Shown piece by piece: positions 3,111 through 48,812 of a stretch of DNA of 64,000 nucleotides. A program made the position numbers and the translations under genes. The DNA comes from Halanaerobium hydrogeniformans (lineage in GTDB: Bacteria > Bacillota > Halanaerobiia > Halanaerobiales > Halanaerobiaceae). Below the pieces are notes generated by a model. That model did not search any database. It saw only the letters and a program-made list of their open reading frames with translations, and was not told where the DNA came from. Each line of letters opens with the position of its first letter. Position 1 is the first letter of the stretch. Location: positions 1-64,000 of the forward strand of contig NC_014654.1 of assembly GCF_000166415.1 (NCBI RefSeq), in the 5' to 3' direction.

Positions 3111-4232
3111 ATGCATTTAAAAAGGGTTCTCTGCCGTAATTTTCGCAATTTCGATGAAATAATACTTGATTTAAATTCAAATTTAAATATATTTTTAGGT
3201 GATAATGGTCAGGGAAAAACAAATTTATTAGAAGCAATTTACATAATGGCTACAACTAATTCCCACCGCAGTAGTGTTTGTTCTGAATTAATAAATTGGA
3301 AAAAAGAAGAAGCTCTTATTCAGTTGCTTTTAGAGCGCAGAGAGGGTAATATTAAATTAGCTATGCGTTTAGATAAAGGTGGACGCAGGGTAGAATTAAA
3401 TGATAATCCACTTGATAAGGTAAAAGAAATGGTGGGTTATCTTAATGCTGTTTTATTTTCGCCTGAAGATTTAAAGTTGGTTAAAGAGGGACCTTCTCAC
3501 CGGAGAGAATTTATTAATTTGGAAATTTCTCAGGTTAGCAGATATTATAATCATCTTTTAAGTAAATATGATCATATTTTAAAACAGAGGAATAATCTTT
3601 TAAAATCAATTAGAGATGGGAAAAAATCTTCAGAAAATATGCTCTCTATTTGGGATGAACAGTTATCTACTATTGGGGCAAAAATTATTTTAAAAAGAAT
3701 AGAAGTAGTTGATAAATTAAAAATCTTGGCTAGACTTTCTCAAAGACAGATAACAGAGGGAAAAGAAGAACTAGAAATAGAATATGATATATCATTAGAT
3801 GGTTTTTCTGAAAAAATGGGAGAGGCAGAGTTGAGAGGACTTTTTAATAAAAATTTAAAAGAAAAAAGAGAACAAGAAATTAATAGAGGTTATACTGTTA
3901 TTGGACCACACAGAGATGATCTAATCTTAAAGATAAATGAGATGGATTTAAGAAAATATGGATCTCAAGGCCAACAGAGAACTGCTGCTCTGGCTTTAAA
4001 ACTTGCAGAGCTTGAATTTATGAAATCTGAAACGGGAGAATATCCAGTTCTGCTTTTAGACGATGTTTTTTCTGAATTAGATAGTTTAAGAAGAAAAGCA
4101 TTGATTAATATTATAGCAAATAAAATTCAAACTATAATTACAGCAACAGACGGAGAAAATTTATCCGGACTTAAAAATAACTCTTATCATGTTTATAGAG
4201 TTAAAGAGGGTAAAATTAAAAAAAGAGGGTGA
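3111..4232 (+). CDS. recF: DNA replication and repair protein RecF
   Basis: SMC-like ATPase that helps load RecA at single-strand gaps together with RecO and RecR. The 373-residue protein has Walker A GDNGQGKTN near residue 30, the ABC-type signature SQGQQRT near 285, and Walker B LLLDDVFSELD near 315. These and the length are typical of RecF. It begins 3 nt after yaaA and its end overlaps the extended reading frame of the DUF370 gene, so the cluster is translated as an operon. Nothing unusual. Confidence 0.96.
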   Translation: MHLKRVLCRNFRNFDEIILDLNSNLNIFLGDNGQGKTNLLEAIYIMATTNSHRSSVCSELINWKKEEALIQLLLERREGNIKLAMRLDKGGRRVELNDNPLDKVKEMVGYLNAVLFSPEDLKLVKEGPSHRREFINLEISQVSRYYNHLLSKYDHILKQRNNLLKSIRDGKKSSENMLSIWDEQLSTIGAKIILKRIEVVDKLKILARLSQRQITEGKEELEIEYDISLDGFSEKMGEAELRGLFNKNLKEKREQEINRGYTVIGPHRDDLILKINEMDLRKYGSQGQQRTAALALKLAELEFMKSETGEYPVLLLDDVFSELDSLRRKALINIIANKIQTIITATDGENLSGLKNNSYHVYRVKEGKIKKRG

Positions 4233-41354: not shown

Positions 41355-41606
41355 TTAACTGCTTTTATTATCAAGATCACTGTAAAACCAAGCTAAGAAT
41401 TTATCGCGTGGAATCACCCATTTCCCTTCTAGCTTTTTAGCAGGTATTATGCTTCTATTTAATAGTTCATAAACTTTAGTTTTGCCGTATGGCAAAATCT
41501 GAACTAAATCTGCTGGAGATAGTGTAAATGGCAGATCTTTTCTTGATTTTCTAGATAGTTCTTTAAACAAATTTTCATTATCTTGATATTTATCATTATT
41601 TTTCAT
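41355..41606 (-). CDS. Excisionase-like helix-turn-helix protein
   Basis: An 83-residue protein with a MerR/Xis-type helix-turn-helix (SPADLVQILPYGKTKVYELLNR) followed by a wing ending GKWVIPRDKFLAWF. Such proteins direct excision with the neighbouring integrase or regulate it. It is 58 nt upstream of int on the same strand and is transcribed away from the 976-residue gene across an operator-like palindrome. Confidence 0.8.
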   Translation of the reverse strand: MKNNDKYQDNENLFKELSRKSRKDLPFTLSPADLVQILPYGKTKVYELLNRSIIPAKKLEGKWVIPRDKFLAWFYSDLDNKSS

Positions 41607-41782: not shown

Positions 41783-44713
41783 ATGACAGATAAAGCTTAT
41801 AAAAAAGAAATATTAAAAACTTCATATCGTGAAACATTAATCTATTGTATTAATTTACTTAACAACCCAGATTTTCAAGAATTTAATGAAGATATAAAAG
41901 AGATTAGAAATGATTGGATAAGCAAAAAAATTACAACTATAAATTGGGATAAGGATAATCGAATTAATAAATGCGGGGAGCTGAAATTAACCGGGCCTAT
42001 ACTACCAGTTAATATAGATAGAGAAAATATTGAATATATATTTTATGAGGGAAATATTCCCGGTATTGACGATAATATATATATAGATAGTTGGCAGTCG
42101 AAAATCAAAGAAAAATTTAATATAAATAAAATAATAATAGATTACAAAAATGGTGAAAATGCCAATAGAGAAGAATATCGAGATTTACTATTACATGAAT
42201 TACATCATAAGAAGAATAATAGTTATGATAAATTTGATCTTCTATTTAAATTAAAAAAATGTTCTTTTATAATGGAGTTGTATTTAGATAAAGTCATCGA
42301 GAAAAAAAATAGAGGTAATAATATATATAAATTTTATAAAAATTTAGCGGCTGAAATTAAAGACAGAAATATTAAAAAAATCAATATAATTTTGAAATCT
42401 ATTTTTGTTGCGTTCTCAAAAGAAGAGCTCAATTCTGATGTAATATCAAATATCTATGAAAAAGTAAGTTCTTATGATAAAAGCAAAACAGGTTATGAGG
42501 AAACCAAGGAAATTATTAATAATATAATTCTTGAACTAAAAAAAGAAAAAATTAATATTAACGAAATATCTCAATCTTTTCAGAAAATATTAACTAGTAA
42601 AGAATTTACCAAGACTAATATCAATACAAATAAATATTTTGAAACAAAAAAACATTTAGAAATAATTTTTGGAGAATTAAAAGAAGAAGGAATTAATAAT
42701 GATGTGCTAGCAAATATTCACAAAGATATAATTTCTTCTTATAAAAATAAAACAGCTAAAAAAGAAGATGCTAAAAAAAATATAAATGAAATATTGCTTG
42801 AATTAAAAAAAATAAAAATTAACAAGAGGATAGACAAAATATCTAAAAATTATAAGAATTGGTTTTTAGATAAGGAAGAATTTACTGAGAGTCATAAGGC
42901 AGAGGAGTATTTAGAGATATTTTTTGATGATTTAAAAGAAGAAGGAATTAATAATGATGTGCTAGCAAATATTCACAAAGATATAATTTCTTCCTATAAA
43001 AATAAAACAGCTAAAAAAGAAGAAGTTAAAAATAAAATAAATAAAATATTGCTTGAACTAAAAACAATGAAAAGTAATATAAATATAAAAAAGATTTCTG
43101 CTCTTTTTCGGGAATTACTCGATAATGATGAATTTAATAAGATTAATACTAATTTAGAAATAAATTTTGAAAAGCCAAAAGGAGAAATAAGTCTTAAAAA
43201 AGTCAAAATAATTTACAAAAAATTAGAATCATTGTTAAATAATTTAGAAGACAAAATAAAAATATATATTGAACAGATTATTTGCGAACTAAAACAAGAC
43301 AAAATTGACTATCTTAAGATTAACAATTTATTCAATAAAATCATCAATAACAAAAAAAGATTTTATGCAGAAAAGAAATTTGCGGAATTAATTTTTTATG
43401 AATATGAAAAGGAATATGAACATGAAAAGTTATTTGTTGATAATGATAAATTATCTAATATTTATAATAATATAAAAAAAAATATAGTTTATAAAAAAAA
43501 TGAAATAAATTTTTTGTCAGAATTTAGATCAGAAATAAATTATATAAAGTTTGATCATTATAATTTATTTGATTTCTATTTAGACTTAGGTAATTACTTA
43601 AATATAAAAGAAGAAAGATTTAATAATGTAATACCTTCTATGGAAATAGAATTTAAAGTATATAGTCATATTTTCGATATAACAATATATGATTATCAAG
43701 ATTTATTCGAGTATTTTGTTCCCGAAAACAAACTCGAAGGATCTATAATTTATAAATTTTATTGTTTTATTAATAATTATTATAATGAATTGAATCATAC
43801 TAAAATAGAGGATCCTTTATCAGAAAAGGAGAGAAAAGAATATAGACTTTTTAAAAGATCTTATCTTGGGATGAAAAAGGATATTGATAATGGTAAAACA
43901 AATTATGAGAAATCATTAGATTATCAAAATAAGGATGGCTACATATATAAATTCAATAAATATATAATAAAAGGCTGCAAAATAAAAAATGAATTTAAAG
44001 ATAAGGAAATGATATTTGACTTTAAGCGTTTACACGAGAAAATAAAAATAAAATTTATTAATTTAATTAAAAAATGGTCTTATCCATCTGTAGCTGGGCC
44101 TGAATATGGAATAGATGAGATTAATCGTTTCTTATGGCGTATTGCAGAAGATAAAAGTGGTGTTATTAGAGATAAATTTACAGAGGTAAATCCTTTGGAA
44201 GATCCATTTGCAATTTTTTTGAGCAATTGTATTGTTTTTGATATGAAAAACATTAAAGATATAGAAAGCTTTTTTATTCCTCCTAAAAAAAAGCTATATG
44301 ACTTAAGAGAATTGATAGTTCAATTTAAAATTGATAAGCATGAATTGGAAAAATTGAAAGAAATGATAGATAATCCTGATAAAACTAAAGAGGATATATC
44401 TGAAAAAATTAATTCTGATTCTTACAAAAAAGGGAAAGAAAATTACAAAAAAAAATTATTAAGAGAGCAGGAATCAGTATGGTCTTATCCAGGTAATTTA
44501 CCGACAAAAAAACTCTGGAATAATTTGTATTATTTAAAAAAAGAAGAATTAGAATATAATGAGATTGACCAAAAACTCAATTCAATAAATTATCACCGTA
44601 TTATGGAATTTTATAATTTTTATATAGATTTTCAAAAACAAGATTTTAATAATGATGATGAGATGTTCAATTATATAAAATCTAATAGCAAATACAATCG
44701 AAAAAAAATATAA
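41783..44713 (+). CDS. Large lysine-rich repeat protein carried by the mobile element
   Basis: A 976-residue protein of no recognised family, rich in Lys, Asn, Ile and Glu, and very AT-rich in DNA. Residues about 205-600 hold at least four diverged repeats of roughly 75-90 residues; two share the exact stretch GINNDVLANIHKDIISSYKN, and their DNA is nearly identical (about 42680-42775 and 42938-43030). HELHH at residues 138-142 matches a zinc-peptidase pattern but may be chance. The C-terminal part (WSYPSVAGPEYGIDEINRF and on) is less repetitive. No signal peptide or membrane segment is seen. The cargo position beside int and xis suggests a defence or host-interaction role, which is inference only. 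Confidence 0.6.
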   Translation: MTDKAYKKEILKTSYRETLIYCINLLNNPDFQEFNEDIKEIRNDWISKKITTINWDKDNRINKCGELKLTGPILPVNIDRENIEYIFYEGNIPGIDDNIYIDSWQSKIKEKFNINKIIIDYKNGENANREEYRDLLLHELHHKKNNSYDKFDLLFKLKKCSFIMELYLDKVIEKKNRGNNIYKFYKNLAAEIKDRNIKKINIILKSIFVAFSKEELNSDVISNIYEKVSSYDKSKTGYEETKEIINNIILELKKEKININEISQSFQKILTSKEFTKTNINTNKYFETKKHLEIIFGELKEEGINNDVLANIHKDIISSYKNKTAKKEDAKKNINEILLELKKIKINKRIDKISKNYKNWFLDKEEFTESHKAEEYLEIFFDDLKEEGINNDVLANIHKDIISSYKNKTAKKEEVKNKINKILLELKTMKSNINIKKISALFRELLDNDEFNKINTNLEINFEKPKGEISLKKVKIIYKKLESLLNNLEDKIKIYIEQIICELKQDKIDYLKINNLFNKIINNKKRFYAEKKFAELIFYEYEKEYEHEKLFVDNDKLSNIYNNIKKNIVYKKNEINFLSEFRSEINYIKFDHYNLFDFYLDLGNYLNIKEERFNNVIPSMEIEFKVYSHIFDITIYDYQDLFEYFVPENKLEGSIIYKFYCFINNYYNELNHTKIEDPLSEKERKEYRLFKRSYLGMKKDIDNGKTNYEKSLDYQNKDGYIYKFNKYIIKGCKIKNEFKDKEMIFDFKRLHEKIKIKFINLIKKWSYPSVAGPEYGIDEINRFLWRIAEDKSGVIRDKFTEVNPLEDPFAIFLSNCIVFDMKNIKDIESFFIPPKKKLYDLRELIVQFKIDKHELEKLKEMIDNPDKTKEDISEKINSDSYKKGKENYKKKLLREQESVWSYPGNLPTKKLWNNLYYLKKEELEYNEIDQKLNSINYHRIMEFYNFYIDFQKQDFNNDDEMFNYIKSNSKYNRKKI

Positions 44714-44898
44714 AAAATTGGTTTAAAACTTATTATAACCTTTTTAATTTGGAAACTCCTTTTAAATAAATATTTTCATCTCAAAAAAATTTTTTTAAAT
44801 TATACAAATAAGCGATTATTTATATTAAATTTACAGCAGATTATATTTATGATGGGTATGCTATTTATTGTAATCTATCAAATATTGAACATTAATAT

Positions 44899-45040
44899 TC
44901 AACGGGTGTTAGATAATCTAAAAAACCAGGAATAGAACCAGTAATTCTGCGATAATTATATCAATTAATATAGTCTAATAGCTCATATTTTAACTCTTCA
45001 AATGTATTAAGTATTCTATTATGGGGAAAAGGCATTTATA
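44899..45040 (-). pseudogene. Transposase remnant (IS3-type C-terminal end)
   Basis: The minus strand reads NTFEELKYELLDYIN, a stop, then YNYRRITGSIPGFLDYLTPVE. This resembles the end of IS3-family transposases (typically ...YNN.R.....L.PVEY). At least one in-frame stop and the absence of the catalytic part show it is a dead fragment. It belongs to the decayed stretch 44714-46526. Confidence 0.6.
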
Positions 45041-45126: not shown

Positions 45127-45475
45127 AGGGTGGACTTGATTTCAGGTCCACCCTCGAAATATCGAAGTCCACCCTCCATGAAGCCCGGCACGTTAGTAAA
45201 AGGTGGTTTGGTGGACTTGTTTTGCCATATTTAAGCACCTGTGCAATTATCGCTGTGTATTCACTTCTGGTTGTTCTTAATCTTATACACTTACACTAGA
45301 ATTATTTATATATATATATATTAGCTTTTGAACAGGTCAACCCAGAGACAGAGTTGCACAGGCACCCCCAAAACCCACTTTCAGGTCCACCAAACCACCT
45401 TTGCCTGACATGACAACGATGTCGGAGGGTGGACTCCTGTTTTGGGGTGGGTGGACTTGTTTTTAAGTCCACCCT
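45127..45475. repeat. Symmetric array of eight TGGAC/GTCCA boxes
   Basis: Four copies of (A)GGGTGGACTTG-like sequence and four of its complement are arranged as a mirror around 45301. Forward copies start at 45127, 45208, 45424 and 45449. Reverse copies end at 45154, 45177, 45393 and 45475. Paired copies are equidistant from the centre to within one base. Outer pairs form hairpins (45127-45154, 45449-45475), and the inner pair extends to an 18-bp inverted repeat. The centre holds TATATATATATATAT (about 45308-45321). The patch is far richer in G and C than its surroundings. Its nature is unknown: a replication origin or a MITE-like element are the main options. Confidence 0.75.
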
Positions 45476-46060
45476 ATCTTTGAATTATTCGTTTTTTTTC
45501 ATAATTTTATTTGCTGCCAATAGGGATGTTATGTCCTAATACAATTGCATAAGCAAAATTTAAAATATATTAGAGTATAAGAATAAAATCTCTTATAATT
45601 TATATTTTCGTTTTGTATTGATTTGTACTAAAATGTGTTATATTATTAATGCAAATAATTAGAAGGAAGCAAGGATAATGGCAGATAATTAATATTATTT
45701 TTCTGCTGAATTGTCAGATATACTTAATTTAGATGCTCGTAATGTGAGAAATTGATTCACAATGTAAATCTACAGTGGTAAAAGTTAGTTTACAATTGTG
45801 ACCAGAGCAAAAATAATTTGATCAGTTTATTGATAAAAACAAAAACACAAAGAAGCATGAATTTAGTTTTCTAAATTTTGAAATTATATATATTTCTGAA
45901 AGAAATGCCTTGTTATTAAAATAATAGGTGTAACAAATCCAAAAAGTGATGTTTCAAAGACTAGCACTGTTAAAATTTTCGGATCTGTGTTAGCTAAAAT
46001 AATCCGATAAAATATTGTCAGAATATTTAAGATGTGATCAAATGCAAATTATATATGATT
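45476..46060. other. Decayed sequence without an intact gene
   Basis: The stretch is AT-rich and shows short coding-like pieces broken by stops. One example starts at about 45678 after a GGAAGCAAGG ribosome-binding-like sequence (MADN, stop, YYFSAELSDILNLDARNVRN). It looks like the ruins of a replication or regulatory gene linked to the DnaD-like remnant that follows. The 44714-44898 and 45041-45126 pieces show nothing recognisable. Confidence 0.45.
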
Positions 46061-46353
46061 TGCAACTAGAAAAAATCAACAAATATATTTCTGAAGGATT
46101 ATCTGAGCAGCTTATTTTAAAAGCTATTGAGTATTGTGGTTTAGGAGGACATAACTAATCGTTTTTCTTTAACAGGCTATTTATGCTTGTAGAGGATGAA
46201 ATTTATACAGTTGATCAGTTGGATAATGTTCTGTCTACAAATAAGTCAACCCATTCTTCCCAAAAAAATAACTCCAGTGAAGATAACAAACAAGATGATT
46301 CCGATTACAAGTGGAAAGATTTCTTTATCGATTTTTCAAAATACAAAGAATAA
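46061..46353 (+). pseudogene. DnaD-type replication protein remnant
   Basis: The frame ending at TAA 46351-46353 reads KINKYISEGLSEQLILKAIE, then a stop at 46156-46158, then NRLFMLVEDEIYTVDQLDNV and a hydrophilic tail. This is the shape of a DnaD/DnaB-like C-terminal domain (helices around EGLSEELI..AIE and EGIYTVEQ). In Firmicutes phages and elements such proteins load the helicase at the element's origin. The stop, and probably an upstream frameshift, make it a pseudogene. The box array lies 600 bp upstream. Positions 46354-46526 show no gene. Confidence 0.6.
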
Positions 46354-48266: not shown

Positions 48267-48812
48267 ATGAAAAGGGTTGAACCAATTAGAGACAAGAAAA
48301 AGATTGAGCAAATCAAAGCAATATTGAAGGCCCAAAGTGATAGAAATTATATGATTTTTGTGGTAGGTATTAACACAGGTTTGAGAATAAGTGATTTGCT
48401 TTCGCTTAAGGTTGAACATATAAGGTATAAAAGGCATATTATGATTATAGAGAAAAAGACTTCTAAAATTAAGCAGTTTTTAATCAATTCATATCTACGT
48501 AGAGAGTTGGATGAATATATGAAAGATATGGATGATTACGAATATTTGTTTCAGAGTAGAATTGGCAAAAATAAACCTTTATCAAGGTTTCAGGCTCACA
48601 GAATAATGAAAGAAGTTGGTAGAGAAGTTAATTTAGAAAGAATAGCTTGCACAACGACAAGGAAGACCTTTGGTTATCATCACTATAAACAGTATAAAGA
48701 TTTAGCTCTTCTTCAGAAACTTTTTAATCACTCTAAACAATGGGTAACATTAGATTATATAGGGATCAATCAAGATATGATGGATGAGTCTATTGAAAAT
48801 TTTCGTTTGTAA
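48267..48812 (+). CDS. Short tyrosine recombinase
   Basis: A 181-residue catalytic-domain-only recombinase. It has Arg in TGLRISDLLSL, the second Arg in TTTRKTFGYHHYK, LFNHSKQW and the Tyr nucleophile in LDYIGI. The HxxR motif of the family reads TTTR here, so the first catalytic histidine is replaced by Thr. The N-terminal core-binding domain is missing. Relatives are common near variable surface loci in Firmicutes, where some invert DNA. Activity is uncertain. A strong GGAG is upstream of the ATG. Confidence 0.82.
   Translation: MKRVEPIRDKKKIEQIKAILKAQSDRNYMIFVVGINTGLRISDLLSLKVEHIRYKRHIMIIEKKTSKIKQFLINSYLRRELDEYMKDMDDYEYLFQSRIGKNKPLSRFQAHRIMKEVGREVNLERIACTTTRKTFGYHHYKQYKDLALLQKLFNHSKQWVTLDYIGINQDMMDESIENFRL

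What the first reader, a model, noticed from the sequence alone, without database searches (positions are those of the whole stretch)
45127..45475. Mirror-symmetric 349-bp array of eight TGGAC boxes near a dead DnaD gene
Box orientation reads forward, reverse, reverse, forward, centre, reverse, forward, forward, reverse. Each box has a partner at the same distance from 45301, even where the sequence between boxes has diverged. This spacing suggests selection on position, as for a protein-binding array. The centre holds an AT tract like an unwinding region, and a DnaD-type remnant lies 600 bp downstream. A lost element origin fits. Alternatives are a MITE with long terminal repeats, or a DNA site for hairpin-recognising transposases.
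Basis: partly seen in the sequence, partly recalled or inferred. Interest (0 to 1): 0.66.

Follow-up and report, generated by a model that had tools for sequence, protein, structure and literature searches.

The report
Orphan replication origin of lost element
The mirror-image array is best read as the replication start site of a phage satellite, phage or plasmid whose replication protein is gone from this bacterium; intact relatives of such sites, with the same mirrored layout and sometimes the same DNA box, lie directly behind D5-type helicase-primase genes in other genomes.

Summary
Eight GGTGGAC boxes in 45127-45475 form four strand-inverted pairs that mirror about 45301 to within 1 bp, around an AT-rich centre (84% AT). 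It is the strongest palindrome in the 64-kb window. Paired boxes agree at 35/38 positions, spacers at 72/127. The genome is Halanaerobium hydrogeniformans. The array is single-copy and was not found in 150 relatives, so nothing supports a dispersed MITE.

The best match is a replication origin of the SaPI/PICI/P4 (D5-type initiator helicase) kind. The same or nearly the same boxes (GGTGGACTTG, GGTAGACTTG, GTGGACGG, GTAGACGG) form arrays beside D5/primpol genes in unrelated phages and Firmicute genomes. Among 47 D5 loci, 10 have mirrored iteron arrays directly downstream of the gene and none upstream. Two of these have 12 boxes that are 6/6 mirrored, with nearly identical spacing but different box sequences. 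The literature describes PICI origins as two iteron sets flanking an AT-rich region.

No D5 gene was found in this genome, so the origin is an orphan. The DnaD remnant is real, but its intact relatives carry repeats inside the rep gene itself; the array probably did not belong to it. Verdict: orphan D5-type origin, likely; function today unproven.

The parts
45127..45475 (.). Mirror-symmetric iteron array, proposed orphan D5-type replication origin
45128..45138 (+). Box 1 (GGGTGGACTTG), left outermost; partner of box 8
45143..45153 (-). Box 2 (GGGTGGACCTG on the minus strand); partner of box 7
45164..45174 (-). Box 3 (GGGTGGACTTC on the minus strand); partner of box 6
45209..45219 (+). Box 4 (TGGTGGACTTG), inner left, pointing to the centre; partner of box 5
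45382..45392 (-). Box 5 (TGGTGGACCTG on the minus strand), inner right, pointing to the centre
45427..45437 (+). Box 6 (GGGTGGACTCC)
45449..45459 (+). Box 7 (GGGTGGACTTG)
45464..45474 (-). Box 8 (GGGTGGACTTA on the minus strand), right outermost
45199..45216 (+). Second conserved arm element next to inner box 4 (AAAGGTGGTTTGGTGGAC), repeated inverted at about 45385-45402
   Evidence: (I2)
45275..45331 (.). AT-rich centre with (TA)n tract, proposed melting (unwinding) region
46048..46350 (+). Remnant of a DnaD-like plasmid replication gene (C-terminal third, one stop), probably a different replicon's relic
45994..46061 (+). Fragment matching the start of a transposase-like gene of other Halanaerobium genomes, abutting the rep remnant
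44866..45022 (-). Decayed end of an IS3-type orfB present in about 11 other copies in this genome
46527..47444 (+). Intact ParB_N-domain gene next to the remnants

Best explanation
The array is the replication origin of a lost mobile element (a phage-inducible-island-like satellite, phage or plasmid) of the kind started by a D5-type (SaPI Rep, P4 alpha, PICI Pri-Rep) initiator helicase. The GGTGGACTTG boxes are iterons. Each half-array would load one Rep hexamer pointing at the centre, and the AT-rich middle would be melted between the two. Mirror spacing would be kept because two helicases must be placed symmetrically; spacer sequence is free to drift. The initiator gene is gone from this genome, so the origin is an orphan and presumably silent unless a related initiator enters the cell. 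Shown here: the array, its symmetry, its single copy, the same boxes and a similar layout beside D5 genes elsewhere, and no detectable D5_N gene in this genome. Inferred: binding by a Rep, melting, and past replication.
For: Same box beside D5/primpol genes in unrelated phages: L037/L039 GGTGGACTT next to a D5-type primase-helicase, L355/L409 GGGTGGACTTG/A beside a D5-like helicase gene, with a primpol gene nearby. In the 86%-identical relative L410 the boxes have become GGGTAGACTTG, so boxes change together. In Firmicute genomes sampled by D5_N gene and not by box, arrays of GTGGACGG (L496) and GTAGACGG (L508) lie directly behind the D5 gene. Of 47 D5 loci, 10 have at least two mirrored pairs downstream and 0 of 47 upstream. 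L500 and L505 have 12 boxes, 6/6 mirrored, spacing 9-12-18-48-9-(103 to 106)-9-48-18-11/12-9, with different box sequences. The same-order genome G024 has an iteron array with 3 of 4 pairs mirrored directly after its D5 gene. Layout of the window array from the centre (inner box facing the AT tract, inverted box 43 bp further out) resembles the others, 46-60 bp. Literature: PICI origins always have two iteron sets flanking an AT-rich region (PMC6092414); [quoted passage not shown] Boxes are better conserved than spacers.
Against: There is no D5_N gene in the genome and no D5 remnant near the array, so the cognate initiator is inferred. The central gap (175 bp) is wider than in the compared arrays (about 60 to 109 bp). 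Most D5 loci tested (37 of 47) show no such array at this sensitivity. The termini read TA-GGGTGGAC...GTCCACCC-TA, which a TA-target transposable element would also show. DUF927-type initiators were not searched for.
Confidence: 0.75

Rival explanations
1. A plasmid partition site (centromere) bound by a ribbon-helix-helix or ParB protein, left from the same dead plasmid as the rep remnant.
For: Three Halanaerobium contigs have palindromic arrays of about 350 bp just upstream of parA: L418 centre 6869, L430 centre 4847, L412 centre 15963; the genes next to parA are as listed. A ParB_N gene lies 1 kb from the window array.
Against: Those arrays are tightly packed 6- or 8-bp units, unlike the widely spaced 10-11 bp boxes here, and no parA was seen near the window array. 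The box itself recurs at D5 loci, not at par loci.
Confidence: 0.1
2. A palindromic MITE (long terminal inverted repeats, TA target site) moved by a Tc1/mariner- or IS630-like transposase.
For: TA on both sides of GGGTGGAC...GTCCACCC; spacer complementarity beyond the boxes.
Against: Single copy in the genome, no copy in 150 relatives, no plasmid match. Spacer complementarity also occurs in D5 origins (L497 z 4.2, L409 3.1, L410 2.6). A MITE gives no reason for internal boxes to be better kept than spacers.
Confidence: 0.1
3. Origin of the DnaD-like plasmid whose rep remnant lies downstream.
For: Proximity: about 570 bp.
Against: The intact relatives L418 and L430 have repeats inside the rep reading frame (ATTTGTTG repeats in L418 at 3836-4052; repeated peptides NLQNADS/SLQNADS in L430 and KSTNGF-like in L418), as in lambda-O-type genes, and no GGTGGAC array was seen near them.
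Confidence: 0.05

Closest known systems
SaPI / PICI replication origin (Rep or Pri-Rep, D5_N or DUF927 helicases)
   Same: Two oppositely oriented iteron sets flanking an AT-rich segment (PMC6092414, PMC7581432)
   Different: No rep gene beside it; wider centre; box sequence GGTGGACTTG; no demonstrated PICI gene set
Phage P4 ori/crr with alpha protein
   Same: Iterons for a primase-helicase; the P4 type I iteron GGTGAACAGT (from memory) resembles GGTGGAC
   Different: Different sequence and layout; P4 was not compared directly here
Iteron arrays of IMG/VR contigs L037/L039 and L355/L409/L410
   Same: Same 9-10 bp box and position beside D5/primpol genes; inner boxes face an AT palindrome in L409/L410
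   Different: Mirror symmetry of spacing is weaker there
Type Ib plasmid centromeres upstream of parA (L418, L430, L412)
   Same: About 350-bp palindromic arrays in the same genus
   Different: Dense 6-8 bp units next to parA and a small gene that is probably its DNA-binding partner

Membership tests
SaPI/PICI/D5-type replication origin | Two sets of iterons in opposite orientation flanking an AT-rich region | tested here: met
   definition from PMC6092414
SaPI/PICI/D5-type replication origin | Iteron sequence of a kind used by D5-type elements | tested here: met
   GTGGAC/GTAGAC arrays at D5 loci
SaPI/PICI/D5-type replication origin | Lies directly 3' of a rep/pri-rep (D5-type) gene | tested here: not met
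   No D5_N gene in the genome or window; hence called an orphan origin, not an intact one
SaPI/PICI/D5-type replication origin | Binds Rep and supports autonomous replication | not testable with these tools
   needs bench work
PICI (whole element) | int-xis-pri-rep-ori module with att duplication | tested here: not met
   int 40154 and an HTH_17 excisionase-like gene at 41355 near tRNA-Ser exist but no pri-rep and no duplicate of the tRNA end
MITE | Dispersed multiple copies | tested here: not met
MITE | Target-site duplication at a homologous empty site | tested here: inconclusive
   TA on both sides, but no homologous flanks with an empty site were found
Type Ib plasmid centromere | Dense short repeats directly upstream of parA | tested here: not met
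   spacing 17-175 bp, no parA in the ORFs around it

The most novel reading that the evidence does not exclude
The orphan origin is kept by selection, as a site replicated in trans by visiting D5-type phages or satellites (a replication hitch-hiker) or as a decoy that titrates their initiator; the better conservation of boxes than spacers would be its trace.
Probability: 0.1. Interest if true: 0.75.

Novelty: new member of a known kind. Interest (0 to 1): 0.48.

Why it matters
It shows that such an origin can be recognised by layout alone after its initiator gene has gone, so orphan origins can be searched for in other genomes. The side result is more general: in two genomes of different genera, D5-type origins keep almost exactly the same mirrored spacing although their box sequences differ, which suggests that the geometry of loading two helicases is conserved while the initiator-box recognition changes.

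Tried and rejected
Dispersed repeat: searched in the own genome, 150 relatives, plasmids; no copies. The exact-pattern hits in genome contigs are about as many as expected by chance (own estimate) and most are isolated matches. The E<0.01 matches in G018, G024, G050, G056 and G104 cover only the central part of the array around the AT tract. Array-like hits L317, L336/L320, L388, L391, L359 look like coding repeats and were set aside (by eye). Rfam: nothing at the array. A 33-residue peptide read from the broken frame at 45678, with the stops filled by guessed residues, found nothing useful in phages. A search for related phage helicases gave only the same contigs plus L410. The SaPIbov1 origin papers (PMC3804134, PMC1964853) are not held, so whether exact mirror spacing was described before could not be checked.

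Full report
Observation. The array at 45127-45475 is as described. Eight copies of GGTGGAC(TTG) lie in orientation > < < > | < > > <, with gaps 17, 21, 43, 175, 43, 22, 17. All four pairs mirror about 45301 to within 1 bp. Shuffling gaps and strands reaches four pairs in 0.1% of trials; uniform placement in none of 1000. The heptamer occurs 14 times in 64 kb, 8 of them here. A sliding palindrome score over the whole window has its maximum at 45301. Paired box positions agree 35/38 and spacers 72/127 (P 3e-5). With boxes masked the spacers still pair better than shuffles. The genome has 2,613,117 bases in one contig, which is the figure printed for Halanaerobium hydrogeniformans (PMC4237134).

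Not a dispersed element. The array is found once in its genome. No array was found in 150 relatives, 11 of them of the same genus, and the plasmid collection gave no match. The flanks are decayed insertion sequences: an IS3-type orfB end at 44866-45022, with about 11 further copies in the genome, and a transposase-like fragment at 45994-46061. No homologous empty site was found.

Same box at replication genes. Scans of viral contigs gave two unrelated phage groups with arrays of the same box. In L037/L039, GGTGGACTT boxes lie beside an 809-aa D5-type primase-helicase. In L355/L409, GGGTGGACTTG/A boxes lie beside a D5-like helicase gene, with a primpol gene nearby. The 86%-identical relative L410 has GGGTAGACTTG at corresponding places, as expected if boxes and initiator change together. 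These phages were found through the box, so they show where such a box can occur, not how often.

Unbiased sample. D5_N (PF08706) genes were collected from relatives and from 299 genomes of the phylum, without regard to boxes, and 47 loci were read. In 10 of 47 the 640 bases downstream of the gene hold an array with at least two mirrored pairs; the upstream control has 0 of 47. Some of the 47 loci are related to each other (L485 and L487 share box and spacing), so they are not all independent. Two arrays use the same core as the window: GTGGACGG in L496 and GTAGACGG in L508. L500 and L505, from different genera, have 12 boxes each, all mirrored, with spacing 9-12-18-48-9-106-9-48-18-11-9 and 9-12-19-47-9-103-9-47-19-12-9, although the boxes are GTGTAGGT and GTAGCAGT. 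The same-order genome G024 has nine GTTACACTT boxes directly after its D5 gene, three of four possible pairs mirrored; alone this is weak (P 0.10 by gap shuffle). Measured from the centre, the window array has the inner box facing the AT tract and an inverted box 43 bp further out; in the other arrays where an inverted box was scored it lies 46-60 bp out. The orientation comparison is firm only for boxes with the GTRGAC core.

Literature. [quoted passage not shown] SaPI Rep and the SCCmec helicase Cch2 recognise iterons just downstream of their own genes; [quoted passage not shown]

The missing initiator. D5_N is not found in this genome at E 10 and D5 proteins have no convincing match near the array. 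The neighbouring remnant at 46048-46350 is the C-terminal third of a DnaD-like rep gene with intact relatives in two Halanaerobium contigs. In those relatives the repeats lie inside the rep frame, so that replicon probably has its origin in the gene, and the window array looks like the relic of a different replication system in the same graveyard. The 976-aa gene at 41783 has no family match. The integrase and excisionase-like genes beside tRNA-Ser could belong to the same lost element, but no attachment-site duplicate was found.

Centromere-like arrays. The same palindrome scan found arrays of about 350 bp upstream of parA in three Halanaerobium contigs. They consist of dense 6- or 8-bp units, as in known type Ib centromeres (from general knowledge), and differ from the window array in unit size and spacing.

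Conclusion. The most likely reading is an orphan D5-type origin: iterons in two mirrored half-arrays that would each load one initiator hexamer towards a central melting region. Binding, melting and replication are inferred. A TA-target MITE and a partition site remain possible at about 0.1 each.

Noticed in passing
L500:4735-5044 and L505:6680-6990: D5-type origins in two genera share an almost identical mirrored spacing of 12 boxes although the box sequences differ (GTGTAGGT and GTAGCAGT).
   Followed up: partly
Spacers of L496, L497, L500, L505, L413, L409, L410 arrays: A second short motif (CAAGG / AAGGCTT / AAACCC) recurs between the inverted and the inner box of many D5 origins; not seen in the window array, which has AAAGGTGGTTT there in both arms. 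Significance not tested.
   Followed up: no
L418:6677-7030, L430:4657-5037, L412:15770-16150: Palindromic arrays of packed 6-8 bp units upstream of parA in three Halanaerobium contigs, probably partition sites.
   Followed up: partly
L418:3836-4052 and L430 rep gene: Repeats inside the DnaD-like rep gene that encode repeated peptides, suggesting an origin within the gene.
   Followed up: no
window 41783-44713: A 976-aa lysine- and isoleucine-rich protein with internal repeats and no Pfam or PHROG match, between the excisionase-like gene and the array.
   Followed up: no
window 48267-48812: A 181-aa integrase-domain protein lacking the N-terminal domains, at the right end of the island-like stretch.
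   Followed up: no
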